In this document: one piece after another, positions 14,780 through 54,438 of the stretch | Layout: each line of letters begins with the position of its first letter | Position numbering within the stretch: the stretch's first letter is position 1 | Assembly: GCA_024741835.1 (NCBI GenBank) | Contig: JAENRP010000038.1 | Span: 1 to 64,000 of the forward strand | From: Diplocarpon mali | Lineage: Eukaryota; Ascomycota; Leotiomycetes; Helotiales; Drepanopezizaceae | Length of the DNA stretch: 64,000 nt | Direction: 5' to 3' | Made by a program: the position numbers and the translations under genes | Notes under the pieces: model-generated | The model's input: the letters and a program-made list of their open reading frames with translations, nothing else | The model's database searches: none | What the model was told of the DNA's origin: nothing

Positions 14780-14784
14780 TAGTA

Positions 14785-15025
14785 TAAAACTGAGGGGAGA
14801 CAACACAAGAATAGGCCTAAGGGAAGACCTAAAAACAAGAGGAGGAAGCACCACAAGCGGGCTCTCTTAAACAAGATGTTGGGAATAAGTCCCAAGTATA
14901 GGGTATATTCAGTACTATAGCGATACGCGCTGTCTCTATATATAGAAGATGGCCCTTTTATCCTCCTACCATCTTACGTTAATTATATGATATATATTAC
15001 GAGACCTATCTATCTTAGGTCTTTA
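14785..15025 (-). repeat. Gypsy-Z 3' LTR (241 bp)
   Basis: It matches 30300-30540. The outer (left) edge keeps CA dinucleotides (GGGGAGACAACACAAG) while the inner end is RIPed (TCTTAGGTCTTTA). No clear polypurine tract is visible next to it. Confidence 0.93.
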
Positions 15026-15373
15026 TATATATCTTAAATAATAAAAGTAGTAGCCTTTACTACTATTAGCAAAGAATACAGAATAATACAGGTTAAGGTA
15101 ATAGTATGTCAATTACTAGCAAACCTTAAGTGCGAGAAAACTAATATATCAAAAGGCCTAAACTAGGGCTATATTATTATTAAAGGTAAAAGAAAAAAAA
15201 GGAGAGTTTTTTNNNNNNNNNNNNNNNNNNNNNNNNNNNNNNNNNNNNNNNNNNNNTATGCGCTTTTCACCTATAGGCCGGGCCCAGGAGTCAGAAAAAG
15301 AAACTAGCAAAACAAACAAACAAGCTATAGAATCGTAAAAAAAAAAACAATCAAAATAGAACCAACCTAGGCG
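15026..15373 (-). other. Gypsy-Z 3' untranslated region with sequence gap
   Basis: Non-coding stretch between ORF3 and the 3' LTR. It contains 44 N at 15213-15256, flanked by an A-run and T-run, and one palindromic unit at 15269-15291. Gypsy-Y has a gap at the same place. Confidence 0.85.
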
Positions 15374-18300
15374 TCAGTTTTCCTTGGTTCTCTTTAAAGG
15401 ATAGAGAGAACTATCATTAGATAATACTCTTTTTGCCAAACGACCACTTCTTCTTATAGTATTGCTATTAGTATCCGACGAGGCAGGTCTTAGTATAGCA
15501 GGAGCTTCTATGCTCCTTGCGGATGCTAGTATAGTATAACGGCTTCTGCTAATAAGAAGAGAGACTTGTATAGTAGTATTATTATTATTATTATTATTAT
15601 CATCTTTAAGAGAATTATTAGTAATAGAGGAGGAGGAGGCGGGAGATTCCACGGATACTACTTCCTTAGCCTTGCCCTTTGATAGATCAAGTTGCGGGCC
15701 GGGCCCAGGAGTTATATTAAGTATCTTTGCATAAGGCTTCTTAGTACTATACTTTTTAAGGAGTATCGTCTTATTAATCATATTATCAGCTTTGATATTG
15801 TCATCTATATCCTTAGTCTTTGTCCAAGACTTGTTGCTATACAATTATAGCTCTAGTTGTTAAACCAGCTTTTAAGTACTAGCAAAATCTTTAAAAAGTT
15901 CTTGTTCGTACTTCTTCAGATATGCTATTAGCTAAGATACGTCTTTTGCGAATAAATCCTTTATAGTTATTACTATTAATAGATCACTCTATAATCGTCT
16001 TCTTATAAGAGCGTCTGATAGTAGACCACCTTTTGTTATGCTAAGCGTTATACGAAACTTGGCTAAGGCTTCTTTAGTAATACTCCATCTTACTATGCTT
16101 AGTTTCTTTATGCGAATGGAATCGATAATAAATTCTTCTAGGTCAGCGCTATTCTTAAGTGATTTATTGCTAATAACTTTTGTATAGTTATTGCTAATAG
16201 TAAGAAAACCACCCTTTCCAGGTTCTCTATCAGAATCCAGGTTAATAAAGGTGCCTTATCTTATAAATATCGAGAATGGAATAGTCTTATTAGAAATGTA
16301 CTCCTTTAGAATTGTTCTATCCTTAGTGTTCAATTCTTTCTATTAAGCTGCGCTTTATGCTAGATTTAATAAGATCTATTAAGAGTTCTTAAGGCGATAG
16401 GATATAAGTGTAGATGACTTATAAGACTTTTCTTATATAGTAAATTCTCCGGTCGATTGTTTGGCTGCTAGAATTATATAGTAGTCAATAGTTCTATTAT
16501 TAGGTGGATTGACCTACGAGCTAGGCTTAGGAGTCAATCTTACGAATCTTATATTAGTATTAATCTTAGTAGAAATAATTCGCAAATAGTGGTTAATGCT
16601 TATAAACTATATAGGCTTAGGATACGCTACTAGCTTATGTAAAGAATTATAATAAGTTAATAGAGCACTAAGATATAGACTATAGTGCATCCTTAAGGTC
16701 TGCTATATCAAGCTATAAGTTATATTATAGAGGAAGGCGGAGGGGGAGCTTGGCTTCTTATCTAAGGTCCGGAAATGGTATTAATACATTTCTAGCTCCT
16801 CTTATGCTATTATTAAAAATGAATTCTTTCTACAATTACTATAACTATGCGTGCGTATAGTACTTAGGAAAGCGCAGCTGAACAATTTAGGCATATTTAA
16901 AAAACCTTTGCTGCGGAGTAATATTAGGTTATCACTAGTTAGTATAGTACTATATTAAGCGGGAGTCCAGGCGATATTATAGAATAATTTCAGAGCTTTA
17001 GGCTCTACCTTAAACTTAGCGAAACCTAATAATATATCTTTCTTGACCTGGCTCGCTATTCTATTGCTAGTGGCCATAATTATATGATTCCTTAGGTATA
17101 GTAAAAACAACTTTAGGTCGGGTGCAATGCAAAATTTGTATATATTAAAGGAAACTTGCTTATTAATTAGAGATACTATTATTAGCTTATAATATTATAT
17201 ATATTATTGTTTATATAGAATATAAAATTTTTCGAAACTGAAGTCCTCGAATATCCTTATTACAAATTTGCTTAATTATATCTTTATCTTTAGTATTATT
17301 GCAATCTTAAATCTATTGCTATATTAAAGTATTATCTTAATATTAAGGGGAACTTTATAGCACTCTATAGATATGATTATTGTACTATTTTCTGGCTTTT
17401 CTTTAAGGATATAGTAGTCGCCCTTCGATTTCTTATGCTTAATAAAGAAATGCATAATGTTGTCTATAGAAAATTCGTCTTATTGTAGCTTTATGATTTG
17501 TTTAATAGCTCTTGCCATTGCTTCTTATACTAGTAAAACTTCTCCTTGACCTTCCTTTTTCAAACGCTTTATTATTAACTTATAGAATTTCAAAACAAAT
17601 TTTTGCAGGTCTTCGGAAAAGGTTTATACGATATCGGCTATGTCCTTCTTAGTATTATTAAAAATTTCTATTACATTAGTGATAGGGTTGTTCTCTTCGT
17701 CTGTCAGATCATCTTTAGAGTCTATATCATTACGTATTCTAACCTATAGGCTAGGCTCATAAGTCAACTTCTTTACTATTAGTATTCTAAGTATTTAAGG
17801 CATCTCTAAGGATAGTAAATCAAACTCGTCTAAGTCTGATAATTAGTAATCGCGATAGTCAACTGTTTGAGTTCCAGGTGTTATAAGCACCTTTAGCTTA
17901 GGGACATCCTCCTTATATAGTACTTCCATCTATAGGCCAGGCCTATGAGTCAAATTTTGCTTATCAGTTGAATCTTCTAAGGGTAGTAGCATTTTCTAAG
18001 CAGCAGGTATAATAAACTCCTATCTTTCCGTCTTATTATCGAAGTAGTTTATAGTATACTCAGCTAGATAGATCATCTTTTCCTTTACAATAAGTAAACT
18101 ATATTATAACTGTTGCAAACTAAGGGTATCTAGAACTGTTTAATCTAGCAATGCAATATTGTTATACTAAGAGGGGCTATCCTTTATAGTCTGAATGGCG
18201 GAATGGACAATAGTACTTAAGAAACCTATAAATTTTCTACCTTGCGCACTATTTTCCTATAGCTTTTTTATACCCTCTTAGATAGTGAAATGATTTAATA

Positions 18301-18886
18301 CCTATATGGCCTTTGCTACTAGTTAGTATATCTTAAAAATTTTGCCAAGCCCTTGCAAGGCGTTATTAGCAGTGATATCAGTTATAAAGTGTGTTCGAAA
18401 AAGTGTACTATAGGTGCTACTTATAAACTGCAACAACCTTTTCATACACTTATTTTTCTTGTCTCGATTCTTCTAAAATAGATCGATTGAATTAGCATAC
18501 CTCTAATATTCCTATAGGAATTTTTCACAATCGATTCCCTTTGTCTTAAGCTTATTCTTAAGAAAATCATCGAAGCCTAAAAATCCTTCTTTGACTATAG
18601 AGATTCTATAGTTTAATACTTCAATAGATGAGTTCAGGAATACCTATTATTCTATTTCACCTAACGTTCTATAAGTACTCACTACATCTTCCAATGATCT
18701 TAATGACTTGCCCTCTTATAAAAAGCCACCCTTTAACATTAGCTTATTGCTAGTAGTATTTATTGACTTACTGCCTAAGGCAACGACTGATATATTCTTC
18801 TTAGGTGTGGCTTTCTTATTTAAGCTTAGTGGTACTATAATGAATTAGTCAGCAGGGGAGGTAGCTTTAAATAAAGAGATGATTAT
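15374..18886 (-). pseudogene. Gypsy-Z ORF3, accessory protein paralogous to ORF2, function unknown
   Basis: One frame runs from the stop TGA (15374-15376) up to at least 18844 with no frameshift, about 1157-1171 codons. Only RIP-type stops interrupt it. The start is uncertain; ATA at 18886 may be a RIPed ATG. It is paralogous to ORF2 along most of its length. Shared blocks include STYxxLGxI near the N-terminus, KFKxxPKALK and MxKxFxCxFL mid-protein, YHFRxxD, AYPKP, and a C-terminal helix-rich block before the basic tail. The tail is low-complexity: a run of seven Asn, Ser/Thr-rich stretches and RRSGRLAKR, which resembles a nuclear-localisation signal. I recognise no catalytic motif. Palindromes encode ITPGPGPQL at 15690 and related peptides at 16512, 17742 and 17928. 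Confidence 0.85.
15583..15600 (-). repeat. ATT microsatellite encoding poly-Asn in ORF3
   Basis: About seven ATT repeats (plus strand) give an Asn tract in the ORF3 C-terminal low-complexity region. Gypsy-Y has a split, longer version near 41255-41290. Confidence 0.8.
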
Positions 18887-19025
18887 TTAAGAAAGATTAA
18901 TAATATAAGAGGCCTATATTAGAAAAGATTGATAATGGAAAGATAATAGTAGTAGTGCTAGTATTATAGGTCTAGTAGGGTTGTAGAGAAAGTAAAAAAG
19001 TAAAATCGTTATACGAAGAGAGGCT

Positions 19026-19033
19026 TATTTATA
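19026..19033 (-). promoter_or_regulatory. TATA-like box upstream of ORF3 (Gypsy-Z)
   Basis: TATAAATA on the minus strand, about 140 bp before the probable ORF3 start and followed by a pyrimidine-rich stretch. It is conserved at the same place in Gypsy-Y (44710-44717). The 511-bp ORF2-ORF3 spacer (18887-19397) holds no ORF I can support. It may be an internal promoter; in such AT-rich DNA chance is possible. Confidence 0.4.
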
Positions 19034-19397
19034 AAGTTTGGAATCGCGCTAGTGCACAAAGGAAAAGTGGGCATAATGAGCTTGGAAGTGGGAACAAAAG
19101 TAGGGTATAACGCATATAAGGACCTATAATTGGTAAATGATAATTCTTCAAAGGTAAGGATGACATTTCAAAGGTAAGCATTAGAAAGTTGTATATAAAG
19201 GAAATAATCAAGGGGTAGATTATATAAAGAATGAAGTAGAGTAAAGAATATATATAGAATAGAATAATAAATAGAGAATAAAGAGGTATAGGTATATAAA
19301 AAGTAGATAATCTTAAAAAATTCAATATTTAATTTGCAATTTCTCCAAATGGTTTTTAAAGGGGGGGGTAGACTATGATTCTTTAGATCGAATCGAC

Positions 19398-22300
19398 TCA
19401 ATTGTCAGTTCTATTATCATTTTAAAGTCTTCTTCTCTTGTATTAGTTCTTATTTCTTAGCGATTTCTTAGCTTTAGGGACCTCTTTTAAAGGATCTTCT
19501 ATTAGTACCCCTAGATTTAGTAACCGAGGTTCATCCGAACCTTCTTATAGGCTTAAGCCAGCTGAGTCCAACCTCACTCGCAGGCTAGGCTTGCGAGTCA
19601 GTCTTAGCGTTTCTAAACTTAAGGGTAAAAATAGGGGATTGGTTCCTAAATCAGGGTCTGATACTATACTAGCATCTCGGTTTGTCTCTTTTCCGAATTT
19701 TCTTATAATAATGCCTTTATTAATTAGTACATTAGGCTTTCGGATAGCATTTACTTTATTGCGTTATCCTTAAGACTTAAGTCTATAAAGAAGCGACTTA
19801 GTATTTATAATATTCGTCTAGGCCTTAATAAGGGTGTTAAAGAGCTTCTGATTATATTTTATAAGGTGGATTTTCAATTCGTCTTTATTAAGAAGAAACA
19901 ACTCTTATACTTCGATTATAACTAATGGATCTATTTAAGAGCGTCGACTAATAATAGCTTTAGAAAGGCTGCTGCAGTTCTTAAGATGAAAAGCTGCTTT
20001 GAAAGGTGCAGTGGTCCTGCTTATATTAATCTATTGAAGTACTAGAGGTTGCTTTAGAGTAGAGATTGAAAAGATAAGGTTGGAGATTTAAGTCTTATTT
20101 TCTAAGGTGTTCTTATTGCGAATAGCTATATAGTTATTACAAAAGGCTATGAAACTACCAGTCTTATAAGGATTATCCGAAAGCATTTTAAGAAGGTGTC
20201 CCTATTTTATTATTATTATAATTAGATTGCTATTATTAGTAATAGGTCGTAAGATCTCCTTTCGCTTCAATTTTACAATCATTTGAGCTAGTTAAGATTT
20301 TGAACCAAGTGCTTAAGAAGTCTATCGACTTGTCTTCTTCGTAGATAGAGTAAGTTTTATATTCGACTAAGAGCCGACCTACCTATTAAGGCTTTTAAAA
20401 GCTAGCCCTTGTCCGATCGGTAGGATCTGATAATCTAAGACTTGCTTTCTAATAAAATTGACTCGCAGGCTAGGACCGCAAGTAAAAATCGGAATTTCTT
20501 TATTAGTAGTACTTGCATCTCTCTTTATTAAAACGACTTAATTATAAAGACTAAGGCCAATCAATTAGGGAGGTTTAGGGTAGGCTATAAGCTGATAGGT
20601 TCCTTTACTTCTTGCTATTATAATTAAGAGGTAGAGTCTATAGTACATTTGAAGGACTTATTAAGTGAGATTAAATATCATATTATAAAGAAAATAAGAA
20701 GGTATAAAGGTCGCGCTATCCATAGGGCGGAAGTGATAAAGATATATCTTTACTTCTTATCTTATAATAGAAAGGAATGTACTTGTAAAAGCACTATTAT
20801 TAGTAGTAAAATTGTCGGTTAGGAAGCGGCATTTAAAGGGTTTAAGCATTACAATTGACCCTTCTTCCTCTATTTCCTCTTGCTATTTATTATTTAGCAA
20901 TGTCGATAAAAAGGAATTGTCCTATTCAATCGGCTCTAATGCCTTTAAGGCTTTAGGATTAGCCTTGAATTTTACAACACCTAGAGATGCCTCTATTATT
21001 AATAGGTTGGATTTACATATCCTTAAAGAGATAAAGAATTAATTATTAAGGTGGATTAGAAAAAGATCGATATCTTCTATTATATAGAGAAGTTCAAGGT
21101 ATTTAATGATTTTATTAATATCAAATCCTTTATAATTAAGACTATAGTAAACCGAAAGAGAGCGAATATAAAGGTCGCAAAGTCTTCTTCCTTCGATTCT
21201 TACGCTAGAAAGATACTGTCGAAAGCGAGTTTTTATTGCAAAGGACACTTAAATGTTATATTGTTCTTTAAGTTCAAGGTTAAGAATGACCGATTAAGGC
21301 ATATTGCTATAATTATAAATGTCTTAATCAATAGATTCCTTTTTGTATTCTCTTTCTTATAAGATAAAATAGTCCTGCTTAGCATCTAAGAGACTAGGTT
21401 TTTAACTTTTGCAATTATTAAAGAATTGAATAATATTTGTAAGGGCGAACTTATCTAAGATAAGCTATTGAATTTATCTAACGGCTCTCTTAATTATCTC
21501 TAAAGTAGGAGGAATAAGGTCTTCCCTTATATTATCGTTTCTAAATCAATTGCATATAAATACAAAGAAGTTAAGAACTAGCTCCTTTAAGTTATTAAGG
21601 AAGGAGTCTAAGCGAGCGCGCAATCCTTTAGTTTTAAATTGCAAATTAGCTAAGGTGGCTATCGAACGATCTATCCTTCTTAGAGGTCGAGTCAAAATTG
21701 GTTGTTTAGCTAAAGGAGAGTCCCTTAAAGATTCTGAAAATTCTAAAGAGGCTGCGCTAAGCGTTCGAGCAGTCTATTCGATAGCGGTTTCTAGAATCAT
21801 TTCGGCAAGAGGCAGGTTAGGTCCAGTTTTAAAATTCTCGTTTCTAACTCTTAGTCTAGGACCGCGAGTCAAATCATATAGTTTAGCACTTATTGTATCT
21901 TTAGGCTAAGAGGCGAATTTCAAAGCAGGCTTAACTACAAATAACCAATTCTCTTCTTTATTATTAAAGAAATCTTATTTAAACTCTAGTATAAGAGTCC
22001 AGTTTTCTTTTAAAATAAGCAACCTATAAGTAGAAGCGTAGAGCCTTAGTATATTAATAATAGTGCTATTAGGTAGGGTAATATCTACAGCCCAATTTGA
22101 TCTTTTTATAGCTCTATTAGCTACTATAAGTACTGCATTAGATAGGCCTATAAATCTGCAACTGCGAATTCGATTGCTTTAGAATTTTACTACTCCTTTT
22201 TAAATAATAAAGAAATTGAGAATTTGAATAGCTCTGGCTATAGGAGTGTTTTCCTTAAGAATTTTTAATAACACTCGCCTTCTATTATTAGAATCAATAT

Positions 22301-22715
22301 TTGTTAAGAAACGTAAACGAAATAGGAGTCCTCTCTTATTAATGGCTAAATTATCTAATCGTCGAATAGATTCTTCCCTTTTATCTTGGTCTATTTTAAA
22401 AGTGTCGGCCAAGGTTATATATTAATCTGCATCAGCTAAGAATTCCTCTTTAAAGATTCCCTTTAGTCTTAATTCTTTAGTTAGGAAGTTGTTAAATTGG
22501 AGAATTCCAAGGGCCACTTGGGTTGAAAGGTTGCTAATAGCATTCGCATAAGCTAAAAGGAGTTTTTATTACTTTATATCTCCTAAGGCTGCGTAGGTCG
22601 ATTTAAAGCTCTTTAATAATGCAATGGCTCTACTATCCTAAGAGAAGTTTGTAACTAGTGCTTGTTTATCCTTTATTGTAGTAGATAAAACCATTTGTGA
22701 GTTCTTTAAAGGCAT
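19398..22715 (-). pseudogene. Gypsy-Z ORF2, accessory protein, function unknown
   Basis: A single uninterrupted frame of 3,318 bp (ATG at 22713-22715, TGA at 19398-19400; 1105 codons) broken only by RIP-type TAA/TAG. Gypsy-Y ORF2 is exactly the same length, with TAA at the stop, as expected from TGA by G-to-A. The N-terminus begins MPLKNSQMVLSTTIKD. It aligns with ORF3 from about residue 40 to the C-terminus. The end is strongly basic (YKRRRL). Palindromes encode LTRGPRLRV (21847), FTCGPSLRVN (20461) and LTRKPSLRV (19576). It lies on the same strand as pol, just downstream. It is not gag, protease, RT, RNase H, integrase or an envelope protein that I recognise, and no transmembrane segment or signal peptide is evident. 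Confidence 0.86.
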
Positions 22716-22930
22716 ATTGCTTATGAAAGATAAGGAGTATAAATAAGAAAGTTTAATAGGGTATAAGAATTAAAAGGGCATATAAGCTGCAATAGGTTTA
22801 CTATATATATATTAAGGAAATTGGACTTTTTTATTTGTTATTTAAGGAAAGTAATAGGAATATTATAATTAAAGGCCAATATTAAGAATGTAAAATAAGT
22901 TAAAGTAGGCAAGAATTTAAAGTGATCTTA
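22716..22930 (-). other. Spacer between pol and ORF2 (Gypsy-Z)
   Basis: About 200 bp without a supportable gene. It holds an AT-alternating stretch (about 22801-22812) roughly 90 bp before the ORF2 ATG that could act as a TATA element. The exact pol stop is unclear because several candidate stops are RIP-type. Confidence 0.4.
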
Positions 22931-25900
22931 AAAGATCTATATCTTAAATAATAAAGGAGGCGACCTCGCCGAAAATGTAAAAATAAGGATTAAAGGAAGG
23001 TAAGACAATTAATAGGCTAGGAAATCGTTTAGTATTCCCGCTTGCGTTCTTCGGATATTTTAGGAATAATAACTTAAGGTCGCAATTAGTTAGGTATTTT
23101 AATATTCTTTATCCGCAGGACTGGCTTATAGGTCAAATTGGAAAAATCTTAGTCTTTATCTAAGGGTTTAAAATTGCTTATATCGCTATTAGTTCTTATA
23201 AAAGATTCAGAGGTTGTATCAATTTCTGATTCGTCTTCTAAAGGGAATAAGGTCTAGTTGCGTTAATAAAAGCGCTTTAGTCAGTTGGCTGCGAAGGTTC
23301 CTTTAATATCGACTCTATTAAGTTCCTAAAGAGAATAATATCCCTTTTCTTCCTACTTAGACTTAACCTTAAATAGACTAAGCTATTGATAGTTAAGTTT
23401 AATATCTGCGGATATATTAATACTTCTTGCAATGTTATAGACTAGGATAAGATCATCTTTTCAAATAGGGTGCGTTTTAAGTACTTTAAAAGCAGCCTAC
23501 GCTTCTTTAGCTTTTTCCTAATATCGTTTCTTTTGCAGAATGATTTCCTCTATATCTATATCTTAAAGCTCAAGTTGTTAGCATCTTATTATAAGTAAAT
23601 CAGAACGGTTCCGAATTTGACTATAGTCGAATAATCTTTAAATAGGCCATTGGGATTCAAGAGGGAGCTATGCCTCTTTGCCGTAGATAAGGAAGAATAG
23701 TATAACTCTAGTCGGTTTATAGATTGTCGTTCGATAAGTAAAGAGTATTTTATAAAAGCGTTTTATCTAATCCTTGAATCCTCTATAAGTAACTTTAGAT
23801 AAACTATTAAGAATGTCATAGTGTCCTCGTTCTACTACTCTATTAGCTTTCGAGTTGTACGCTAAGATTTGAACCTATTTAATGCTATATTTTCATAAGA
23901 AAGCTTTAACTACTCCTTTGTTTTTAAGGCCTTTATTAATAGTTAATCTGCTAAAAAGTCTATAGCAATAGACCACGTCTTCCTAAAGGAACTTTGCAAT
24001 AGATTCAGAGTTAGCAGATCTTAAAGGTCGTCCTTTAAGCCATCCTAATAGGTCTTCCTTTATTAGAATAAAATATATTATCCTATTCTTAATAGTTAGT
24101 ACTTATATAACGTCAAGGCTGACTTTATAGAAAAGGCTTAATAGCTAGGTTAGGAATAAGGGATTTTCCTTACGACTAGGTTTTCGTTTCTAATAGGGGA
24201 CGCAACTCTTTACGAAAGCTTTGCAGTCTTTAAAAGAGCCTTTTTAAAAGAATTTTCTTAAGAGTTAGTAGTAAGTAGACTCAGCTCCTTAGTGGCCAGT
24301 TTCCTTATAAACATCCTAGATAGCCTTAGCCTTTAGTTTTTCGTCGTCTAAGTAGAGTTATATAGGGAATGAGTTATTGCTCCTTTTAAATAATCGTCTT
24401 CCTTATATTAGATAAATCAGAGCTTTAGCTTTGAATTTCTAAAAATCCTTAGGAGTAACTATCTTTAGTTGTTTAAGCGTAATTAAAAACTTCGCAATTT
24501 CTTTAGAGTCACCTAAGTAGTTAGGTGATAAAATTCTCTTATTTGACTCGCGGGCTAGGCTTGCGAGTTAAGTCCCTTTAAGGCGATATATCGATAGATA
24601 ATTAACTTCGTTTTCTACTTACTTATTAATATCTGTTTTATCTTCTTTAATTAAATTAAAAGGGTAGGGCTAAGTTCTTTTTAAAAGGCTATCTGCGGTA
24701 GTGTTTTTCATTCTTAGAATATATTTGACTTTAAAATCCATTAGTCTTATTTAAGCAATCCATTTTATTAGCAAGGCTTTAGGTAGGTCGCTTATAGCTC
24801 TATTCAATTGTTCTACTAGCACTTTAGTATCGGTTTCGAAGATGAAGTGAGTGCTATAGAGGTCGCTTCTTATCTTTTTCATTGCTTTTAAGGCTCCTTT
24901 GCATTCCTATTTAATAGTATTATACTTTATCTCTACTGGATTCTAAAGACTACTTTTAAAGCGAGCTAGATGTCTTTTCTATTAGCTATTAGCTTATTAA
25001 AGGACGGCACCCTATCCGATTAAGCTTGCGTCAACTATTAGTATTATTGGCCTAGCGTCGGCTCTATAGTCTATTTTAATCAAATATAGCGCTTTAAGCA
25101 ACGCTTGCTTTAGTTATTTCATAGCCTCTATTTAAGGTTCCTCCTATTAAAACTCAGCCCCTTTCTAAAATAAGGCGTAAATAGGCGCTGCCTTTTTAGC
25201 GAAATCCTTGATCTAAATGCGATAATATACCATAACGCTAATGAACGCGCGAGCTTTTGCTACATTATTATACCTCTTCTATTCGTCGATTTTAAGTACT
25301 TTAGCCCTTTAAGGACTTCGGCTATTAGAATTAGTAATAAAACCAATAATTTCTATTGATAGAAGATAGTATTATAACTTTGGACCAACTGTTGCTCTTG
25401 CCCTTTCGAATCGTATAAGTACCTAGTTTAGGTTTTAAATGTGTTCTATTATAAATCGTCGTATATTAGGAAGAACTTCTTTATAGTTATAGAATGATCT
25501 TAATCCTTTTACTCTTATATCGTCTATATAAGGGAGCGCAATATTAAGTATATAATCTACTAATATCTTATAGATTACTCGGACAAATTAAGCGATCGAA
25601 TTTATAGCCTCTTAAGGTAATCTTATTATCTAAAGTAGCCTAAGAGGGGTTTGAATTGCTATTATATCTCTCAATTTAACGTTAAGAATAAATTGGTTAT
25701 ATTTAAAGAAGAAGTCAATAAGAGAGCTATAGGTTAATCTTACGAATTCATTCGAGAACTTATCCATATTCGGAGGAACGTTAGCGTCCTTAACAGTTAC
25801 TCGGTTCATCTCTACTACTGCTATTATTAGTCTATAAGTTCCCTTCTCTTTCTTAGCAACTAAGAACCATTTGTTCCTATAAGGGCTATTATAGAACTTG

Positions 25901-26811
25901 AGAACTCTTTGCTTTAGCCTATCCTTTAATATTTCGATTACCTTTTCTTAAAGAGCTTTAGGGACCTTGAATGTTTTCTCTTACTAGGCTTTATAGGGTA
26001 TTGTTTTAATCTTAATATAAGGTATGACCTCTTCTCGAATCTAGCTAAGTTCCGTCTAATTAAAAGCTAAAGTGTCCTCTCGATTTATTAAGGTTTTATA
26101 AAGTAGTTCGCGTTCTTGTTTTATTAAGTCATCTCTAATTTTCAGCATATCGAAATGTTCTTTTATTAGCCGATATCCGATAGGTTTATTAGAAAATCTG
26201 CCTATAATAAACTTATTAAATTTGCCACCCGGCTTCGGAGGTCGAAGCTTCTCGTCTTATTCAAACCAATCGTCCAGTCCTTTAGGCTTTAAGCTATTAA
26301 AGATTCCTTAATCCACCGGTTGTACTTTATCGGCCTTGCTTTTATATATAGTTCGAATATTAGCTAGTACTATACTTCTCTGCTTCTTTCCTTTTTTATC
26401 AAATCCTATAAAACAGTCCGAATTTTCCTTTTTAAAAACAAATAAAAGATTTTTTGAATCGTTAATTTAAAGTACGTAAATGGAAATGTCGTTGGTAATT
26501 TTATTATTTTTCACTCGCAGGTCCGGTCTATAAGTGGTTTTTAGGTTTTTCAAAATGATTAGTAAATTGTCGAAATTTGTAAAACGAACTCTCTTTTCTA
26601 TCTTATTTTTCTTTTTTCTTAATTGTTAAGCCGATAAAACGCCGATTGCACTATTTTTCAAAATTCCAGATTTGACTCCTAATCTAAGACCGCGAGTCAA
26701 ATCGCTATTATTCAAAATCGGCAAACTCACCTTTCTTTTACTATAACTCCTCGCTAGGTGCCTTCCTTTATTAGCATTAAGCCTAGCCCTTATACTAGCT
26801 AATCGTTTCCT
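22930..26811 (-). pseudogene. Gypsy-Z pol: RT, RNase H, integrase
   Basis: Translated on the minus strand, it opens after a stop near 26817, in the -1 frame relative to gag-protease. RT: NKWFLVAKKEKG near 25880, LIDFFF in the palm, and the catalytic IDD within LPYIDDIRVKG at about 25505-25540. RNase H near 24840-24700 includes LNRAISDLPKALLIKW. Integrase follows (about 24300-23300) and ends in a basic tail. Palindromes encode LTRGLRLGV (26675), TYRPDLRV (26513) and LTRKPSPRV (24546). RT to integrase stay in one frame; stops are RIP-type. The end coordinate is approximate. Confidence 0.87.
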
Positions 26812-29800
26812 AAAACCTCATTTTAGAATTCGGCTATATCTCTTGCGATAACTATTTATCCTTCTAAGGATTGATCCGTATTCTAAAGGCTAGCTTTTAT
26901 AAGCCTATCTTTAGGATAGTTAAATATTAGCTAAGATTTTAAAATAAAGGGCATTTTTAAAAGAATATCGTTTAAGGAATTCTCTATTATTAAAAAGTTA
27001 GTATAATTAATGATTCCTTTAACTCTAACCTTTACATTTTTTACCTATTTATTAAAATTGTATTTCAATCCAAAGATAGTCAAATAAATAAAGAGTCGAT
27101 CGCTAACAATTATTAATTAAGCTATTTCTACCACTTTTCTAATTATTATATTAACTTCTGAACTATAATCGATTAGAGCCTTTGCTTTAACTAATTCTTC
27201 TATAGAATAAATAATAATAGGGCTTTTTATCGCAACTGCTAAACAATTTCAATTAATATTTTAAGATATTAAAGCTATTGCTATAATATTATAGTACCTC
27301 TGGGTTCCTTTGTCTTTTGCAATCTAAAGACATTTGATTAAGGCTAGGTGCTTTTTAAAGTTCTTTTACATTACAATTTCCATTTCCTTATTATTATTCA
27401 AATCTTTAAAGGCAACTAGGATATGCTTTCCTAGCACTTTATCAAAGCGTTTAATTAAACTAAATAGGTCTTTAAACGTAAGGTTAATTTGCTAAGCTAT
27501 AATATTCTCTACGGCTTTCTTTATTGCGGTTGAACTAGCGTATTTATCAACGAATTTCTCCTATTTTAATATCTGTCTCTTTCGCTTAAGGTCAAGGGTC
27601 TGCGTAATAACTTCAACTTCTTAATCTTTAAGCTTAGAGCTATCTTTATTTATTATATCTTTAATCAATTCGTCTGCTATATCAGCTTTATCCTTATCTA
27701 CTGCAGTTCTAGACTATTAGGTATCTTTTAATATTTGGACTCTATATTAAGATTCCTAAGTTGCACGCGCTGATTTCTGAACTTTAGCTAGTTTTATTAG
27801 TATTAATAGAGTAGAAGATCTAGAAGGACGCTGAGAATTCCAAGGGTTCCTAGATATAAAAGCAGTATTAATATCAGCTGAAATATTGTTATTAACCTAT
27901 CTTAAGATAGAGATGCCTTTAACTTCTATAGCTATTTAATTAAAAGCTAGGTCCTTAAGAACTCCCTTAGGTAGATTGCTAATTAGACCTATATATATAT
28001 AAGTTGGAATTTTAGCATTTATATCTATAATACGCTATCGTTCGACCAAATTCTCGTCCTATTTCGTACTATATATCATTGTTCGAATAGTCTATAACTA
28101 TAAGCGATTCTGGTGCTTTTTAATAAGGATAGCTTTTAGCCTAGGATCCCTAATGCAAAGCATCCTATACTTATTAATATATATGACCCTAGTGTTAATA
28201 AAACGAAGGAAAAGAGGGTAATCGTTGCGATACTTATATAGAGCGCAATTGGGTTCTTTATTATTGCAAAAGTTGCAAGTTAGTCGTCTTCTATTACCAT
28301 TCCCTTAGTACCCTATAGCATTGATATTAGCAGAGTGCTAGTTGGGATTAATTTCTCCTTCTTTAATCAACTGTTGAGTTCTTATATTAATAGGTTGTTC
28401 CGAATGATAAGAAGCAGGAGTCTGGTAATAAGAACTACTATATTAGCTTATAATGGCCGAGTTTTGCCTATTACCAAATTAGGGAATATGCTATTTTTCT
28501 TATAAGAGATTATTAATCTTAGTTTTTAAGCTTTAGATTCGGAGTTCTGCAAATTAGGTCTTAAGTTCCTTAATTCTAAGGTTGGATTTCACTCCTAGGT
28601 CGGGCTCGCGAGTGAAAGGTATGACTACTAGGTTCTTCTTTACCTCCTCTATAACTTCTAGAGCCTTTGAGTGTTCTTGGACCAGGCTCTTAAGGTCTTT
28701 AGTATAAAAGGGAGTAGGGGCTTTTTCCTACTCTATAGTATCAATGGTTCTTTTACTAAGATCTGATTTTAAAGTAAAGGCCGCGAATTCCTTAAATAAG
28801 GCGAAGGTTATAGGGTCTTGCTTATTGATCCTAAAATGCTTAATGATCTTATTTTAAAGTCCAATAGGTAATCTGAGTAAGAAAAGGCGGCCTCTTTCAA
28901 CTTCGCTAAGTATTTTCTAGCTGATTAAAGTGTTTGATATATAAGTAAAAGTCCGATAGTAGTTCTTGAGTTCCTTAGGAGTATAAGTGACTAGAACAAA
29001 TTCCTTTAAGAAAGCTAGGGTATTGCGAATCTGCTATTTATTAAATTTGCGAAATTCAGATTTAAGGGCCTTAATAAGGAGTTCTTATAAACTATGAGTT
29101 TTCCATTTGAGGAGGGACTTGATAATATCCTTACTTATATGATTATAGTAGCAAGGAAGTTAAGAAATCATATCCTCTTATATAATATTAAAATCGTAAT
29201 AAGTTTCCTTATATTACTTAAGGAAATTAGTAATATTAGCGCCTATAAAGTAAGGAGCGCTAAGGGAATTAGGAAGGGGAAAGTGACTAGTAATAGCCTT
29301 GAATGCGGCTATTATCGTTTTATACTAACCATCTAAGTTAATAGAATCTATAAGAGGTAAAAGGGAAGCTTTAATATTGCGAGATTGATTGCTAAAAGGA
29401 GTACTTCGAAATTCAAAAGGGCTTAAAGAATGTTTAGAATCCGAGTCAATCTTAAAGTGACTAAGACGAGTTTGAAAAGATTCAAATAAAGGGTTAGTGA
29501 AAAGTTTAAAATTATTATTATTTTTAATGTTTTTTAATATTAATATTAAAAAAGTAAATAGCAGTCCTAAGTTGTTTAAGGACGTCTTTTTATCCTCCTA
29601 CTTATAGGCTAGGCTTAGGAGTAGAATTCCAGATTCTGCTAAAAGTTTAATCTGAGTTTGCTAAGAGATTCTAAGTAGGTGCTAAATAGCTAATAGGAGC
29701 GTCGCGACTAATCGCAATAAGATAAGGTTTACTTAATCAAGGACTAATTTCTAAGATAAGGTTTATATTTAAGATTCTTCTTAGCCTTTAAGCCAATTCC

Positions 29801-30008
29801 TATTAGTCCTTAGAATAAAGGGGTCTCTAAAGACGATTCTAGGGCAATTTTTAGAGTTCTATTAAGCTAAGGCGGCTGAATTATTAGATTCGGATTTCTG
29901 AAGATTCTGAGGAGGCACTTCCAGTTAGAGTTTGCGCTTGGTATTACTTGAGTACTCGAAACCACTGCTATTTAAGATTGCTATTATAGGGTTCGCCAAA
30001 CTTTTCAT
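26727..30008 (-). pseudogene. Gypsy-Z gag-protease
   Basis: ATG at 30006-30008 (begins MKSLANPIIAIL), TGA at 26727-26729: 1093 codons in one frame. A Cys cluster CNFCNNKEPNC near 28250-28290 is a possible nucleic-acid-binding knuckle, though it is not a standard CCHC. The protease at about 27179 reads ALIDYSSEVNII, where the usual active site is A-L-I-D-S-G-S; Tyr and Ser here need more than one change. The capsid region is not otherwise recognisable. Palindromes lie at 28591 and 29600. Frame 0 and the pol frame overlap by about 90 bp, with the candidate slip site inside. Confidence 0.83.
26805..26811 (-). promoter_or_regulatory. Candidate -1 ribosomal frameshift site between protease and RT (Gypsy-Z)
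   Basis: Minus-strand AGGAAAC sits in the gag frame as A GGA AAC. Reversing one RIP change (TTAGG from TTGGG) gives G GGA AAC, a known retroviral -1 slippery heptamer. Slipping there reads AAA CGA TTA and enters the pol frame. The frame offset between gag start and pol is 3n+2 in both Gypsy-Z and Gypsy-Y. Confidence 0.5.
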
Positions 30009-30299
30009 ACTAGGAAGCCGAAAATTCCGAAAATCTTAAAGTTAAGGAAGAAAATAAGGGTTTTTAAAGCAGAGCCGAAAAGGGAAAATCTAAGGTTATT
30101 AATAATTGCTAAATGAAAATCGATAGTTCCAAGTAACTAGGCGATTAAGGATAAGGGTTTTAAAGTCGATTAAAATGCTATAAGTGTTTCGAAGACGTAT
30201 TCTTCAAAAGGCCGGTCTCTTATCTGCGAACTAAGAGATCGATAAGGTCGTATAAGGACGGAAATCTCAAGAAATCGGTCCCTGCGTAAGTTACTAATA

Positions 30300-30540
30300 T
30301 AAAACTAAGGGGAGATAATATAAGAATAGGCCTAAGGGAAGACCTAAAAACAAAAGGAGGAAGTACTATAAGCGGGCTCTCTTAAATAAGATGTTAGGAA
30401 CAAGTCCTAAATATGGGGTATATTTAATACTATAGCAACACGCGCTGTCTCTATATATAGAAGATGGCCCTTTTATCCTCCTACCGTCCTGCGTCGATCA
30501 TGTGATATATATCACGAGACCTATCTATCTCAGGTCTCTA
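30300..30540 (-). repeat. Gypsy-Z 5' LTR (241 bp)
   Basis: The outer 40 bp hold two dyads: GTGATATATATCAC and GAGACCT..AGGTCTC. These could form hairpins at the end of the LTR. The leader 30009-30299 has no ORF; no convincing primer-binding site was identified next to the LTR. Confidence 0.93.
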
Positions 30541-30545
30541 TAGTA

Positions 30546-38611: not shown

Positions 38612-40474
38612 AAGACCTATATTCGAATCCGATAAGGTTAAAGGCTTATTCTTTTTAGCAACTCTACTAGATACGATAAACTATATCATCGATAACTTAA
38701 GCAGTCGCGATATTACTAAGTTTATTAATATCGAATTGAAAATACTAGATATCTCTAATAAATACTTACTAACTATCGAAACATCTACTACTACCTACGC
38801 TGCGCAATAGACGGCTGCCTACGATATACAATAATCCTAAGCCGCACTGCTAGTACTACCGAGGATAGTAAAGTACTTATAATGCCGAAAGTACAACCTT
38901 ACCTTCGTCGGATACGTCTATACGAATTGCAATAAGCTTTAAAAGCATAAGGAGTAATAGCAGAGACGAATACTAGCGGCATTATTATCTGTATTAAAGC
39001 TTAAGGGACATAGCGCTAAACGCTAAAAAGCAAATAATGCATTAGCAAATAACGCTAATAAATCTACTAGCGATACCGACAATAGCGGTATAAAGGTTAT
39101 CGCACTATCCGCTTACTATACTACCCGCGCTATAGCTAGCGCAACTATTGACTTAACAGATAGCCTACTATTAAGATATACCTTGCTAGTAGAAAACCTT
39201 AACTAGAACGGAAAGCGATCCCGTATTAAGGAGGTAAGTGCCTACGCTGCCATCCGACGGCCCTTAGCTATTACAACCAACGACCCTACCTATTAGCTAT
39301 TTAATACCAGTGCCTTACGGCATATAACCGGCTATATAGATGATTTTATATCCCTATCCCTTAAGATAGGTACTATTACTATAGCTAGCAAGATCAAATT
39401 ACCTATAAAGGGCATTGGACTTATTCAATTACACTATAGGATGCTAGATAGGTCTATTAAGATCATTAAGCTAACTAATACTCTCTACTCTAGTGAGTTG
39501 TATAAGACCCGGCTCTTCTTATAGAGCTATATCTATTACTGCGGCTTTAAGCTCTACGGTAAGGGTAATAACGTCTACCTTACTTGCAATAGTATAAACG
39601 CTATTTAGGCACGCTATATAGACGGCATTATACAAATACAACTCGATAACCTAAACGCTCTATCTTCTAATTAAGTAGCACTTGCAACTAGTTGCTTTAT
39701 ATTATATATAGAGTTCTATTACGCTATTGGATATCTTTAGGTCCTAAAACCTAAGCGAGTGTATAAGGACGGCGAATACCTATTACCTTAACCTAAAGAC
39801 TTCTACTACAAGACCTGCGAGCTCTTTAAGTCTATATATCGCTGACTTATACTATCTACCCTAATAGTAGCGCAAGCGCTTAAACCTTTTAAAGTTATAT
39901 ACTCTAACCTATTTAGCAAATTCTCTTAGGCTAGCTTTAGAGGCGCTAGGTACTTTATAAGCTTTATCTGCTAGGCCACTCGCCACTTATAGGTTCGTTT
40001 CTTTAAAAAGAAGTCAGATGTCCTATAAGTAATACGCGATTTTATTATATATATTAATATACAGTTCGACCAATAGGTTATACCTACTAATATTATACTT
40101 ATTAAGTGTTTTAAAATAGATAATAGTAATAAATATATCGCTACTATAAAAGACCTTAAGTAATTGGGAATCGTATATAATATAGTGCCGCCCTACTACT
40201 ATTAACTTAATAGACTCCATAAGAGATGGAACCGCGCTATTATAGAAATTTCCTATGCGATAATCGATACTAATCACCTCTTATTCTTATAAGCAAAGGC
40301 GGTTCAGACTGCTAATTTTCTTAAAAACATCACCTCTTACTTTGCACTTAAATGTACGCTGTATAAAGCTCTATTTAGCAAAAAGCCATCTATTAAATAC
40401 CTTTATCCTTTTAATACAAAGGTCTATATATATATCCCTTTTAAAGCTTAAGCTCTTAGCTTAAAGCTATTATA
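38612..40474 (+). mobile_element. Copia-D: gag, protease and integrase region
   Basis: A different Copia family from A/B/C and W. The plus frame shows a gag with RKYNLTFVGYVY near 38890, a long middle segment, and an integrase ending with PPYYYQLNRLHKRWNRAI near 40190-40240 (compare PPYxPQxNGxxER in Copia integrases). It breaks at 40474 where Gypsy-Y starts. RIP stops throughout; no 23-bp palindromes seen. The family keeps an unusually GC-rich texture in places (for example 38800-39300). Confidence 0.85.
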
Positions 40475-40714
40475 AAACTGGGGAGGAGACAACATAAGAA
40501 TAGGCCTAAGGGAAGACCTAAAAACAAGAGGAGGAAGCACCACAAGCGGGCTCTCTTAGATAAGATATTAGGGACAAGTCCTAAGTATAAGGTATATTCA
40601 ATACTATGGCGATACGCGCTATCTCTATATATAGAAGGTGGCCCTTTTATCCTCCTACTAGCCTGCGCCGATCATATGATATATATTATAAGACCTATCT
40701 ATCTTAGGTCTTTA
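40475..40714 (-). repeat. Gypsy-Y 3' LTR (240 bp)
   Basis: Partner of 61606-61847. Outer edge keeps GGAGACAACATAAG; inner end is RIPed. Confidence 0.93.
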
Positions 40715-40883
40715 TATATATCCTAAATAACAAAAGTAGTAGCCTTTACTACTATTAGCAAAGAATATAAAATAATATAAGTTAAGGCAATAGTATATCA
40801 ATTATTAGCAAACCCTAAGTGCGAGAAAACTAATATATTAAAAGGCCTAAACTAGGGCTATATTATCATTAAAGGTAAAAGGA

Positions 40884-40929
40884 NNNNNNNNNNNNNNNNN
40901 NNNNNNNNNNNNNNNNNNNNNNNNNNNNN
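40884..40929. other. Sequence gap (46 N) in the Gypsy-Y 3' UTR
   Basis: It lies in the 3' UTR between GGTAAAAGGA and a T-run, at the position homologous to the 44-N gap of Gypsy-Z. A palindromic unit (40948-40970) follows at once. Confidence 0.95.
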
Positions 40930-41047
40930 TTTTTTTATACACTTTTTACCTATAGGCCAGGCCTAGGAGTTAGAAAACGAAACTAGTAAAATAAACAAAT
41001 AAGCTATAGAGTTGTAAAAATAATTAAAAATAGTACTAACCTAGATG

Positions 41048-44000
41048 TCAATTTTCCTTAGTTCTCTTTAAAGGATAGGGAGAACTATTACTAGATAATA
41101 CTCTCTTTATAAAGCGCCTACTTCTTCTTAATAGTTCACTATTAGTATTAGAAGAGTCTGGTCTTAGTATTGTAAGAGCTTTAGTATTTTATAAAGATGC
41201 TAGTATAGTTTGACGGCTTCTGCTAATAAGGAGGGAGACTTATATTATGGCGTTATTATTATTATCCTCTTTATTATTATTATTATCCTTTAAAGAGTCT
41301 TTTGCTATAGAGGGAGATAAGGCGGGCAATTTAATAGATAATACTTCCTTTTCTTTACCTTTGGTTAATATAAGTTGCGGGCCGGGCCTAGGAGTTATAT
41401 TAGAGGGTTTAGTATAAGGTTTCTTAGTGCTATACTTTTTAAGAAGGATCGTCTTATTGATTATATTATTAGCCTTAATATTATTATTAGTGCCTTTTAT
41501 CTTAGTCTAGGACTTATCCTTATATAGTTATAGCTCTAACTATTGAATTAGCTTTTAAGTATAGGTGAAATTATTAAAAAGTTCTTACTTATACTTCTTT
41601 AGATATATTATTAATTGAGTTATATCTTTAGAGAATAACTCCTTTACTATTATTACTACTAATAGATCGTTCTATAGCCGTTTCCTTATAAGTGCCTCTA
41701 ATAGTAGGCCTCCTTTTATTATGCTAAGTATTATACGAAATTTGGCTAACGATTCTCTAGCAATACTCTATCTTATAGTACTAGGTCTTTTTATACTAAT
41801 AGAATTAATAAGAAAATCTTCTAGGTCTATGCTATTCTCTAGTAAGTTATTGCTAATAACTTTTGTATAGTTGTTGCTAATAGTAAGAAAGCCACCTTTT
41901 CCTAGTTCTCTAGCAGATTCTATATTAATAAATATGCTTTGTCTAATAAATATAAAGAACAGAGTCGTTTTATTAGAGATATACTCCTTTAGAAGTATCT
42001 TCTTTCTAGTGTTTAATTCTTTCTATTGTACTGCATTTCGAGCCAGATTTAGTAAGATCTATTAAGCATTCTTAGGGCGTTAGGGTATAAGATTTGATAA
42101 TTTATAGGATTTTTCCTAAATAGCGAATTCTCTAGTCGATTGTTTAGCTACTAGAATCATATAGTAATTAATAGTTCTATTATCGGGTGGATTGACCTAT
42201 AAGCTAGGCCTAGGAGTCAATCTTATAAATCTTGTATTAGCATTAATCTTAGTAGTAATAACTTTTAAGTAGTAGTTAATTTTAATAAACTATATAGGCT
42301 TAGGATATATTACTAGTTTGTATAAAGACTTATATTAAGTTAGCAAAGCACCTAGGTATAATCTATGATGCATCCTTAGTATTTATTGTATTAAGCTATA
42401 AGTTATATTATAGAGGTAGGCAAAGGGGAGGTTTGGCTTCTTATCTAAGGTCCAGAAGTAGTATTAGTATATTTCTAGTTCTTCTTATACTAATATTAAA
42501 AATGAATTCTTTCTACGATTACTATGACTATATGTGCGCATAGCGCTTAAAAAGGCGTAGCTAAATAACTTAGGCATATTTAAAAAGCCTTTGCTGCAGA
42601 ATGATATAAAGTTGTTAATAGTTAGTATAGTATTGTATTAGGCAGGGGTCTATGCGATATTATAGAACAATTTAAGGGCTTTAGGTGCTACTCTAAACTT
42701 AGAGAAGCCTAACGATATATCCTTCTTAACTTGGCTTGCCATTCTATTGCTAGTAGCTATAATTGCATGATTTCCTAGATATAATAAAAATAAGATTAAG
42801 TTAGGAGTAGTATAAAATTTGTAGATATTAGACGATATATCTTCATTAGTAAGGCCTATTATTGCTAATCTATAGTACTGCGCATATTAGCATTTATAAA
42901 GGGCGTAGAACTTTTCAAAATTGAAGTCCTTAAATATTCCTATTATAAACTTTATAAGTCTTATCTTTATTTCTAATATCACTACTATCTTAAAACTATT
43001 GCTATACTATAGTATTATCTTTATATTAAAGGGGACCTAATAATATTCTATAAAGATAATATTTATATTAACTTCGGATTTCTCCTTAAGAATATAAAAG
43101 TCACCCTTTAATTTCTTATACTTAATAAAGAACTATATAATATTATCTATAGAAAATTCGTCTTATAGCAGTTTTATGATCTGCTTAATAGCTCTTATTG
43201 TCCTTTCCTATGCTAATAAGACTTCTCCTTAACCTTCTTTTCTTAAATGCTTTATTATTAACTTATAGAATTTGAGAATAAATTTTTATAAGTCATTAGG
43301 AAAAGATTGTATAATATCGGCGGTATCCTTTTTAATATTATTAAAAATTTCTAGCATATTAGTAATAGTGCCTATTTCTTTATTAGACAATTCATCTTCT
43401 AAGTCTATAATATTATATATATTAACCTATAGGCCGGGCCTGCGAGTTATTTTCTTTACTACTAATGTTTAGGATATTTAAGGTATATCTGAGGATAGTA
43501 ACTCAAATTCATCTAAGTTGGAGGAATAGTAGTCGGGTAGGTCAGCTGCTTAAGTTCCTAGTATTATAGGTACCTTTGGCTTAAGGACATTCTCCTTATA
43601 TGCTGATTCTACTTATAGGCTGGGCTTATAAGTCAAATTCTCCTTATCAGTTATTCCTATTAAGGGTAGTAGTATTTTTAAAGTAATAGGGATAATAAAC
43701 TCCTATCTCTCTAACTTATTATTAAAGTAATTTATAGTATATTTAGCAAGATAAGTCATCTTTTCTTTTATAATAAGTAGACTATATTGCAACTGTTAAA
43801 GGCTAAGTATATTTAGAACAGTTTAGTTAGGAAGTGCAAAATTATTATACTATAAGGGTTCATCTTTTATAGTCTAAATAGTAGAGTGTATAATAGTGCT
43901 TAAGAACCTAACAAATTTTCTACCTCTAATACTATTTCCTTACAGCTTTTTTATATCTTCTTAAATAGTGAAATGATTTAATACTTATATGGCCTTTGCT

Positions 44001-54429: not shown

Positions 54430-54438
54430 CACCCCTTT
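54430..54438 (-). promoter_or_regulatory. Copia-W polypurine tract
   Basis: AAAGGGGTG on the minus strand directly abuts the 3' LTR, where the plus-strand primer is expected. Confidence 0.6.

What the first reader, a model, noticed from the sequence alone, without database searches (positions are those of the whole stretch)
15374..22715. Giant Gypsy retrotransposon carrying two tandem, mutually paralogous accessory ORFs of unknown function
Downstream of integrase, Gypsy-Z carries ORF2 (19398-22715, 1105 codons) and ORF3 (15374-18886, about 1157-1171 codons), both on the pol strand. Read through RIP stops, they share blocks in the same order (STYxxLGxI; KFKxxPKALK; YHFRxxD; AYPKP), palindromes at apparently matching places, and a basic C-terminus. 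They therefore look like an old duplication within the element. Neither resembles a retroelement protein I know, and two large proteins make up nearly half the element.
Basis: partly seen in the sequence, partly recalled or inferred. Interest (0 to 1): 0.92.

Follow-up and report, generated by a model that had tools for sequence, protein, structure and literature searches.

The report
Retrotransposon with hypervariable duplicated accessory gene
A 15.8-kb fungal jumping gene carries two large sister proteins of unknown function, and one of them exists in many old, reshuffled versions while the rest of the element is nearly uniform, a pattern usually seen in genes for self-recognition or conflict.

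Summary
A 15.76-kb Ty3/Gypsy element (14783-30542, minus strand) carries two ~1,100-residue ORFs after pol. ORF2 and ORF3 are paralogues: BLASTP E=4e-70 with RIP stops as X; 35% identity, 638 bits between intact homologues annotated in Diplocarpon coronariae under consecutive locus tags. No significant Pfam, NCBIfam or PDB match; AlphaFold2 failed (pLDDT about 30).

New here: counting only transversions, which RIP does not make, ORF3 is a hypervariable cassette. Between the window's two copies it shows 1.7-8.1% per 300-nt bin, against 0-1.7% in ORF1, pol and ORF2. Twenty ORF3 copies fall into nine haplotypes, several of them mosaics of others; third codon positions dominate. So these look like old alleles under purifying selection, exchanged between near-identical backbones. 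Two of four public D. coronariae ORF3 proteins match whole haplotypes, two in part. Function is not shown. I favour a nuclear self-specificity (copy-control) factor, with Ty1 gag/p22 as nearest working parallel; VANC-like anti-silencing and neutral import are rivals. The palindromes are a separate dispersed repeat. New variant of a known kind.

The parts
14783..30542 (-). Giant Ty3/Gypsy LTR retrotransposon, copy 1 (15,760 bp)
   Evidence: 245-bp LTRs at both ends; candidate 4-bp target-site repeat (CTAC) read by eye
30298..30542 (-). 5' LTR
   Evidence: limits read by eye
27000..29999 (-). ORF1 (gag-like, approximate limits); no Pfam gag match
   Evidence: stop density per frame; only a sub-threshold Pfam hit
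22900..27000 (-). pol frame (approximate limits)
   Evidence: stop density; read in pieces with X at stops
25519..25530 (-). YIDD motif of reverse transcriptase
   Evidence: position counted by eye; the RVT_1 profile gave no hit in the RIPed copies
24757..25053 (-). RNase H domain (PF17917, E=9e-13)
24175..24297 (-). Integrase zinc-binding domain (PF17921, E=7e-7), downstream of RNase H = Gypsy order
19398..22715 (-). ORF2, 1105 codons, uniform accessory gene; public homologue P0004 (PZA11_006394)
15374..18838 (-). ORF3, paralogue of ORF2, hypervariable mosaic gene; public homologues P0005-P0008
18839..19397 (-). ORF2-ORF3 intergenic block, 1.8-4.4% transversions in the 8 of 8 ORF3 loci that hold a different ORF3 haplotype and cover it; it does not follow ORF3 strictly (C255, C292: 0.6-0.8% with copy 1's ORF3)
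14783..15027 (-). 3' LTR
   Evidence: limits read by eye
16509..16537 (.). dispersed palindrome in ORF3 (linker peptide LTPGPGSRV in P0005)
19573..19601 (.). dispersed palindrome in ORF2
20458..20486 (.). dispersed palindrome in ORF2
21844..21872 (.). dispersed palindrome in ORF2
24543..24571 (.). dispersed palindrome in pol, read in another frame than the others
26510..26538 (.). dispersed palindrome in pol
26672..26700 (.). dispersed palindrome in pol
28588..28616 (.). dispersed palindrome in ORF1
40467..61844 (-). Copy 2 of the same element, interrupted by a nested LTR element (54183-59798)
45086..48400 (-). ORF2 of copy 2 (13 transversions from copy 1)
41051..44521 (-). ORF3 of copy 2, a different haplotype (186 transversions from copy 1), the haplotype of public protein P0007

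Best explanation
A giant Ty3/Gypsy retrotransposon of a Diplocarpon (very probably D. coronariae) carries a tandem pair of paralogous accessory genes. SHOWN: ORF2 and ORF3 are paralogues; both were under protein-level constraint before RIP; ORF2, pol, ORF1 and LTRs are nearly uniform between the copies read; ORF3 exists there as several diverged, often intragenically recombined haplotypes on that uniform backbone. INFERRED: the haplotypes are swapped between elements by template switching of co-packaged RNAs, and are kept diverse by selection favouring rare types. MOST LIKELY MECHANISM (about 0.35): ORF2 and ORF3 are nuclear, non-structural trans-acting proteins. ORF2 is the invariant partner. 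ORF3 sets specificity: ORF3 made by resident copies acts on elements with the same ORF3 type (self-restriction or copy-number control), so an element that acquires a rare ORF3 escapes and spreads. This would work like Ty1 gag/p22 copy control or phage immunity groups, but with a dedicated, duplicated accessory gene.
For: Paralogy. Eighteen of 18 distinct full-length ORF2 copies align without a gap, and ORF2's few transversion columns also lean to codon position 3 (10/8/20). Transversion-only scan of the two window copies: ORF3 1.7-8.1% per 300-nt bin, ORF1, pol and ORF2 0-1.7%. In the same pairs of elements, ORF2 differs by 10-15 and ORF3 by 151-191 transversions (C12, C150, C245 versus copy 1). 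Codon position 3 carries 286 of 438 polymorphic transversion columns among 9 haplotypes (93/59/286). In those three pairs the number of third-position transversions is itself 16-21 times that of ORF2 (94-124 versus 6-7), so the alleles are old, not merely fast. Mosaics: C298 is transversion-free against C214 for 1,100 nt and against C150 for 2,395 nt; 18 of 36 haplotype pairs have a longest shared run reached in 0 of 2000 random placements (the pairs share blocks, so they are not 18 independent events). One backbone with another's ORF3: C255 has 8 ORF2 but 2 ORF3 transversions from copy 1. Public proteins match: P0005 = haplotype of C214 (2 of 1157 residues not explained by RIP), P0007 = copy 2 and C245 (1 of 1086 each); P0006 matches C150 over the first 300 codons only, and P0008 comes near C298 and C150 after about codon 400. 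The four differ from each other by 14.6-17.0%. No membrane-like stretch (maximum 19-aa hydropathy 1.26 and 1.06), basic C-termini RKRRRLRS / RRSGRSAKR..PPKRTK: suggests nucleus, not envelope (my reading, no predictor run). Parallel: Ty1 mosaics whose breakpoints coincide with the gag ORF, with gag type deciding restriction (PMC7055915, abstract and passages).
Against: No function, localisation or expression datum. No fold (pLDDT 29.5 and 31.1). No significant similarity of ORF2/ORF3 to the element's gag or pol pieces (best E 0.044), so it is not p22-like by descent. The LTRs do not vary with ORF3 in the copies read, so a DNA target of ORF3 specificity is not evident. The intergenic and 3' regions vary, but not strictly with ORF3: C255 and C292 keep copy 1's ORF3 yet differ in both (C292 only). 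ORF3's first part is less variable between the two window copies (1.7-2.4%), C581 is only 0.7-3.7% from copy 1, and 18 of 36 haplotype pairs gave no 0-of-2000 run. Balancing selection is inferred, with no formal test; repeated import of ORF3 from diverged sister elements could mimic it. The 20 ORF3 copies are not a random sample: 2 from the window, 16 from the top of two ranked searches, 2 picked from their lists.
Confidence: 0.4

Rival explanations
1. ORF2/ORF3 are sequence-specific anti-silencing or transcription factors of the element (VANC-like): they bind element DNA in the nucleus and lift host silencing; ORF3 diversifies to follow or shift targets.
For: Nuclear-type basic tails; two related proteins in one element; related VANCs act on different target spectra (PMC5735166, abstract and section list only). 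The dispersed palindromes have the shape of a dimer binding site.
Against: Targets should co-vary; LTR, gag and pol vary little in the copies read. An arms race predicts recent, amino-acid-rich change, but third positions dominate. No Pfam match above cut-off. The palindromes also lie in an unrelated Copia-like pol.
Confidence: 0.25
2. No special selection: ORF3 was imported several times from long-diverged sister elements by recombination downstream of ORF2, while a recently successful gag-pol-ORF2 backbone spread; ORF3 diversity is neutral carry-over.
For: Recombination is plainly frequent; protein-level constraint is purifying; the intergenic block is partly uncoupled from ORF3.
Against: Nine haplotypes in 20 copies, most pairs of them 149-229 transversions apart, with breakpoints inside ORF3 rather than only at its border. 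The public search gave four ORF3 clusters against one ORF2 cluster at 90% identity. A neutral locus with that much recombination should have shared the backbone's shallow ancestry (inference).
Confidence: 0.25
3. ORF2/ORF3 are structural or entry (env-like) proteins and ORF3 varies as viral surface proteins do.
For: Position after pol is that of env; the most variable gene of retroviruses is env (established knowledge, recalled).
Against: No hydrophobic stretch strong enough for a membrane span, no signal-peptide-like start by eye, basic nuclear-type tails.
Confidence: 0.05
4. ORF3 is a killer/antidote-type selfish gene (as wtf genes beside Tf LTRs in fission yeast; recalled, not looked up), diversified because each type protects only against itself.
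For: Old mosaic alleles fit such systems.
Against: Multi-copy on a retroelement; no membrane region; ORF2, the only candidate partner, is nearly uniform.
Confidence: 0.05

Closest known systems
Ty1 / Ty1' copy number control (gag, p22) in Saccharomyces
   Same: Divergence between elements of one family is high over one ORF, mosaics break at that ORF's borders, and gag type decides which elements are restricted (PMC7055915, abstract and passages read).
   Different: There the gene is gag itself and two main types exist; here it is a separate accessory gene after pol, duplicated, without significant similarity to the element's gag/pol pieces, with nine haplotypes in 20 copies. Self-restriction is untested here.
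VANC anti-silencing proteins of VANDAL elements (Arabidopsis)
   Same: Element-encoded accessory proteins acting on their own elements; related proteins with diverged targets (PMC5735166, abstract and section list).
   Different: VANDALs are DNA transposons (recalled); no VANC sequence was compared; no target variation seen here.
Giant Gypsy elements with extra domains (Burro of planarians; Ogre and Cyclops of plants)
   Same: Gypsy elements enlarged by extra coding sequence (PMC6431247, passages; Ogre and Cyclops seen there only in the reference list).
   Different: Burro exceeds 30 kb and has env- and BCL2-like regions before the protease; here 15.76 kb with two paralogous ORFs after pol.
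Botrytis cinerea BcGypsy1 (Boty-type) with additional ORF brtn
   Same: Leotiomycete Gypsy element with an additional ORF (PMC8365987, passages).
   Different: brtn is antisense (title in that paper's reference list); ORF2/ORF3 are sense, two, paralogous and about 1,100 aa.
Rickettsia palindromic elements (recalled) / protein-coding palindromic repeats (PMC2996958, search listing only)
   Same: Short palindromes placed in frame inside unrelated proteins.
   Different: Here in fungal retroelements; concerns the side feature, not ORF2/ORF3.

Membership tests
Ty3/Gypsy LTR retrotransposon | LTRs at both ends | tested here: met
   245-bp LTR pair, copy 1 and copy 2
Ty3/Gypsy LTR retrotransposon | RT-RNase H-integrase order | tested here: met
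   RNase H 24757-25053 then integrase zinc domain 24175-24297 on the minus strand; YIDD upstream; RVT_1 profile itself not hit
Ty3/Gypsy LTR retrotransposon | recognisable gag | tested here: inconclusive
   long frame, no Pfam gag match in the RIPed copy
env-bearing Gypsy (errantivirus-like) | third ORF with signal peptide and membrane span | tested here: not met
   maximum 19-aa hydropathy 1.26 / 1.06; signal peptide judged by eye only
Ty1-type copy control | restriction factor derived from gag | tested here: not met
   no significant BLASTP between ORF2/ORF3 homologues and gag/pol pieces (pieces read through stops as X, which lowers sensitivity)
Ty1-type copy control | specificity gene is a divergence peak in a uniform element | tested here: met
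Ty1-type copy control | type-specific trans restriction of mobility | not testable with these tools
   needs an assay
VANC family | sequence homology to VANC | not tested
   no VANC sequence was compared; only the absence of any Pfam match above cut-off is known
VANC family | binding to element-specific motifs | not testable with these tools
   needs DAP-seq or ChIP
ORF2/ORF3 as one family | end-to-end homology | tested here: met
   35% identity over 1064 columns, 638 bits

The most novel reading that the evidence does not exclude
A eukaryotic retrotransposon family keeps a multi-allelic self/non-self recognition locus: ORF3 haplotypes act as 'immunity groups' that decide which sibling elements are restrained, are held by negative frequency-dependent selection inside one species' element population, and are shuffled by reverse-transcription template switching.
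Probability: 0.25. Interest if true: 0.9.

Novelty: new variant of a known kind. Interest (0 to 1): 0.74.

Why it matters
Old, mosaic, balanced-looking alleles are the mark of recognition genes (MHC, S-locus, het genes; general knowledge). Finding that mark on one gene of a transposon, with the other gene of the pair nearly uniform, would mean that elements within a genome compete and recognise each other, and it gives a concrete protein pair to test. The transversion-only method used here also reads the population genetics of RIP-destroyed elements without repairing them.

Tried and rejected
Profile searches: Pfam on RIPed and public proteins, NCBIfam, PHROGs, PDB by sequence for ORF2 and by profile for both: nothing significant; EF-G-binding_N (best E 0.024) is below its cut-off and a PHROG of unknown function (E 0.036) matches 17 residues; both rejected. 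Viral contigs: 144 pattern matches, none confirmed. Protein database: only D. coronariae homologues, but these searches are weak at distance: the ORF2 search did not return the ORF3 homologues (36-38% identity to P0004), and the profile search did not return four of its own five members, so 'restricted to Diplocarpon' is not claimed. AlphaFold2 on P0004 and P0005 with 5-row alignments gave pLDDT 29.5 and 31.1; no fold search was run on such models. Origin of ORF2/ORF3 from gag or pol: no significant match. First palindrome pattern: 0 matches, replaced by a better one. Reading the 20 palindrome loci as host genes: rejected; all 20 show one peptide context ([Q or stop]L[R/K]..LT), and the 2 of 20 tested carry a retroviral-polymerase SH3 domain that I read as Copia-type. 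Rows dropped: in script some loci were wrongly oriented (overlong alignments), corrected, with L012 re-oriented by its coordinates; L001 and L009 (the window's own copy) were not used twice; L022 and L033 (same places as L003 and L011) were dropped; L028, L016 and L036 were not but are. Paper searches: nine of ten allowed; in the listings seen none names these ORFs; only searches were aimed at that. In the D. coronariae genome paper (PMC11527701, 12 of 20 passages shown) I saw Ty3 and Copia fractions and no mention of these ORFs.
Full report
THE ELEMENT. The window lies in a 49.4-Mb genome of 676 contigs. Copy 1 spans 14783-30542 on the minus strand with 245-bp LTRs; its ends carry a candidate 4-bp target repeat read by eye. 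The order on the minus strand is ORF1 (gag-like), pol, ORF2, ORF3. Pfam finds RNase H (E=9e-13) and, downstream, the integrase zinc domain (E=7e-7) in read-through pieces; YIDD is visible, though the RT profile itself was not hit. That is Ty3/Gypsy order. Copy 2 (40467-61844) is interrupted by another LTR element.

THE TWO ORFS. With stops as X, ORF2 and ORF3 align over 1033 columns at 28% identity, E=4e-70. A protein search found an intact 1105-aa ORF2 homologue, PZA11_006394, and four ORF3 homologues, one of them PZA11_006393, all named Diplocarpon coronariae. The consecutive tags and equal longest-contig length suggest that the pair is adjacent there too. P0004 and P0005 give 35% identity and 638 bits. 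P0006-P0008 differ in places in ways that look like gene-model errors (internal stretches missing in P0007 and P0008, altered C-terminus of P0006). ORF3 starts at 18838 by this alignment. In the genome 60 distinct ORF2 and 72 distinct ORF3 places were listed (each search lists 40-42, so lower bounds); 42 of the 60 have a listed ORF3 place 511-580 bp away. All listed protein matches carry stops: 32 or more in the 42 of ORF2, 31 or more in the 40 of ORF3.

WHICH FUNGUS. Residues of the public D. coronariae proteins that differ from the window genome's copies are almost all explained by RIP-type changes when the haplotype is the same: 2 unexplained of 1157 (P0005 versus C214), 1 of 1086 (P0007 versus copy 2 and versus C245), 1 of 1105 (P0004 versus C298). 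Other ORF2 copies tested leave 16-19 of 1105; other ORF3 pairs leave 70-149, except three partial matches (25, 39, 51); ORF2 against ORF3 leaves 534 of 1044. The genome is therefore D. coronariae or something very near (inference).

ORF3 IS HYPERVARIABLE. RIP makes transitions only (established knowledge), so transversions show the history before RIP. Between the window's two copies, 300-nt bins of ORF3 carry 1.7-8.1% transversions, and bins of ORF2, pol and ORF1 0-1.7% (the lowest ORF3 bins are at its start, the highest others are the ORF2 end and one ORF1 bin). In other copies ORF3 bins of other haplotypes are mostly 3-8% (range 0.7-8.3%, the low ones in C581 and C12), the intergenic block 1.8-4.4%, ORF2 0-0.7% except C523 (1.5-1.7%), the end of pol 0.1-0.7%; in one copy read further, pol is 0.3% and ORF1 0.6%. 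Copies with copy 1's own haplotype show nearly none in ORF3. Eight elements with both genes read: C12, C150 and C245 differ from copy 1 by 10, 12 and 15 transversions in ORF2 but 151, 191 and 185 in ORF3; C218, C253 and C390 by 0 in both; C255 by 8 in ORF2 and 2 in ORF3, so the two genes are not locked together.

OLD ALLELES, PURIFYING SELECTION, MOSAICS. Eighteen ORF2 copies align without one gap; among 14 ORF3 copies nine gaps are of 9 nt and one of 1 nt. Among nine ORF3 haplotypes 93, 59 and 286 columns show transversions at codon positions 1, 2 and 3. Position-3 divergence of other haplotypes from copy 1 (94-136 per about 1,155 codons) is an order of magnitude above that of ORF2 (0-10 per 1,105), so the ORF3 lineages are older, not just faster in amino acids. 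Twenty ORF3 copies cluster into nine haplotypes at a 30-transversion limit (sizes 9, 3, 2 and six singles; C7 is 33 from C214, so eight under a slightly looser limit). Several are mosaics: C298 equals C214 for 1,100 nt and C150 for 2,395 nt; C581 follows copy 2 at its start and is nearer copy 1 later; C12 shares a 914-nt block with C523. In 18 of 36 pairs the longest shared run was never reached in 2000 random placements; the pairs share blocks and so are not independent, uneven rates along the gene would also lengthen runs, and the other 18 pairs did not reach that mark. The public proteins P0005-P0008 are nearly equidistant too, 14.6-17.0% apart, and P0006 matches C150 over its first 300 codons but not beyond. 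Sampling is not random: 2 copies are the window's, 16 the top of two ranked searches, 2 picked from their lists.

MECHANISM. No domain, fold or expression evidence exists. The tails RKRRRLRS and RRSGRSAKRVLS...PPKRTK look like nuclear signals (my reading, no predictor run), and neither protein has a membrane-like stretch. An env role is therefore unlikely. Old, many, diverged alleles with purifying selection fit rare-type advantage better than an arms race of sweeps (inference; no formal test of balancing selection was made). I therefore favour ORF3 as a self-specificity factor with ORF2 as invariant partner; the Ty1 case shows that an element gene can play this part, with mosaics breaking at the gag ORF (PMC7055915, abstract and passages). 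Against it: no co-varying target is seen, and the intergenic block does not follow ORF3 strictly (C255). VANC-like anti-silencing (PMC5735166, abstract) and neutral import of ORF3 are real rivals, and I give them 0.25 each.

THE PALINDROMES. TTGACTC N5 CC N GG N5 GAGTCAA occurs 16 times in the window with up to 3 mismatches, against 0.00 expected, and 27 times exactly in the genome against 0 for the reversed control. Twenty stretches holding 21 of those 27 were read; all 20 show one peptide context, Copia-like by its SH3 domain in the 2 tested. In copy 1 of the Gypsy element 7 of 8 coding palindromes above threshold read in one frame, 1 in another (37 hits in the window against 0 or 1 in each of 10 shuffles). 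At the two aligned positions of ORF2 and ORF3 they precede the duplication or were reseeded. They are a dispersed palindromic repeat of retroelement coding regions, reminiscent of Rickettsia palindromic elements (recalled), and not in themselves proof of the duplication.

NOVELTY. Nine paper searches in an open-licence library listed no paper that I could see to report these ORFs; I saw listings, passages of four papers and the abstract of one more. Gypsy elements with extra ORFs are known; a duplicated accessory pair with one hypervariable mosaic member is, as far as these searches show, new.

Noticed in passing
window 5305-5645, 8861-8889, 36113-36408, 54604-58104 and within the element: A ~29-bp GC-rich palindrome dispersed over several repeat families, partly in tandem arrays; in the coding stretches read it mostly gives LTxGPGxRV, also in a Copia-like pol.
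   Followed up: partly
window 54183-59798: LTR element (245-bp LTRs, 90% alike) nested in copy 2 of the giant Gypsy element.
   Followed up: no
window 1-9899 and 32128-38609: Another repeat family in inverted orientation, about 86-95% alike per longer piece, with internal direct repeats.
   Followed up: no
window 19398-22715 (ORF2) and 15374-18838 (ORF3): An invariant C-x2-H-x7-C with an upstream invariant C in all five public homologues of ORF2/ORF3 (P0004 C469, C513, H516, C524), a possible metal site.
   Followed up: no
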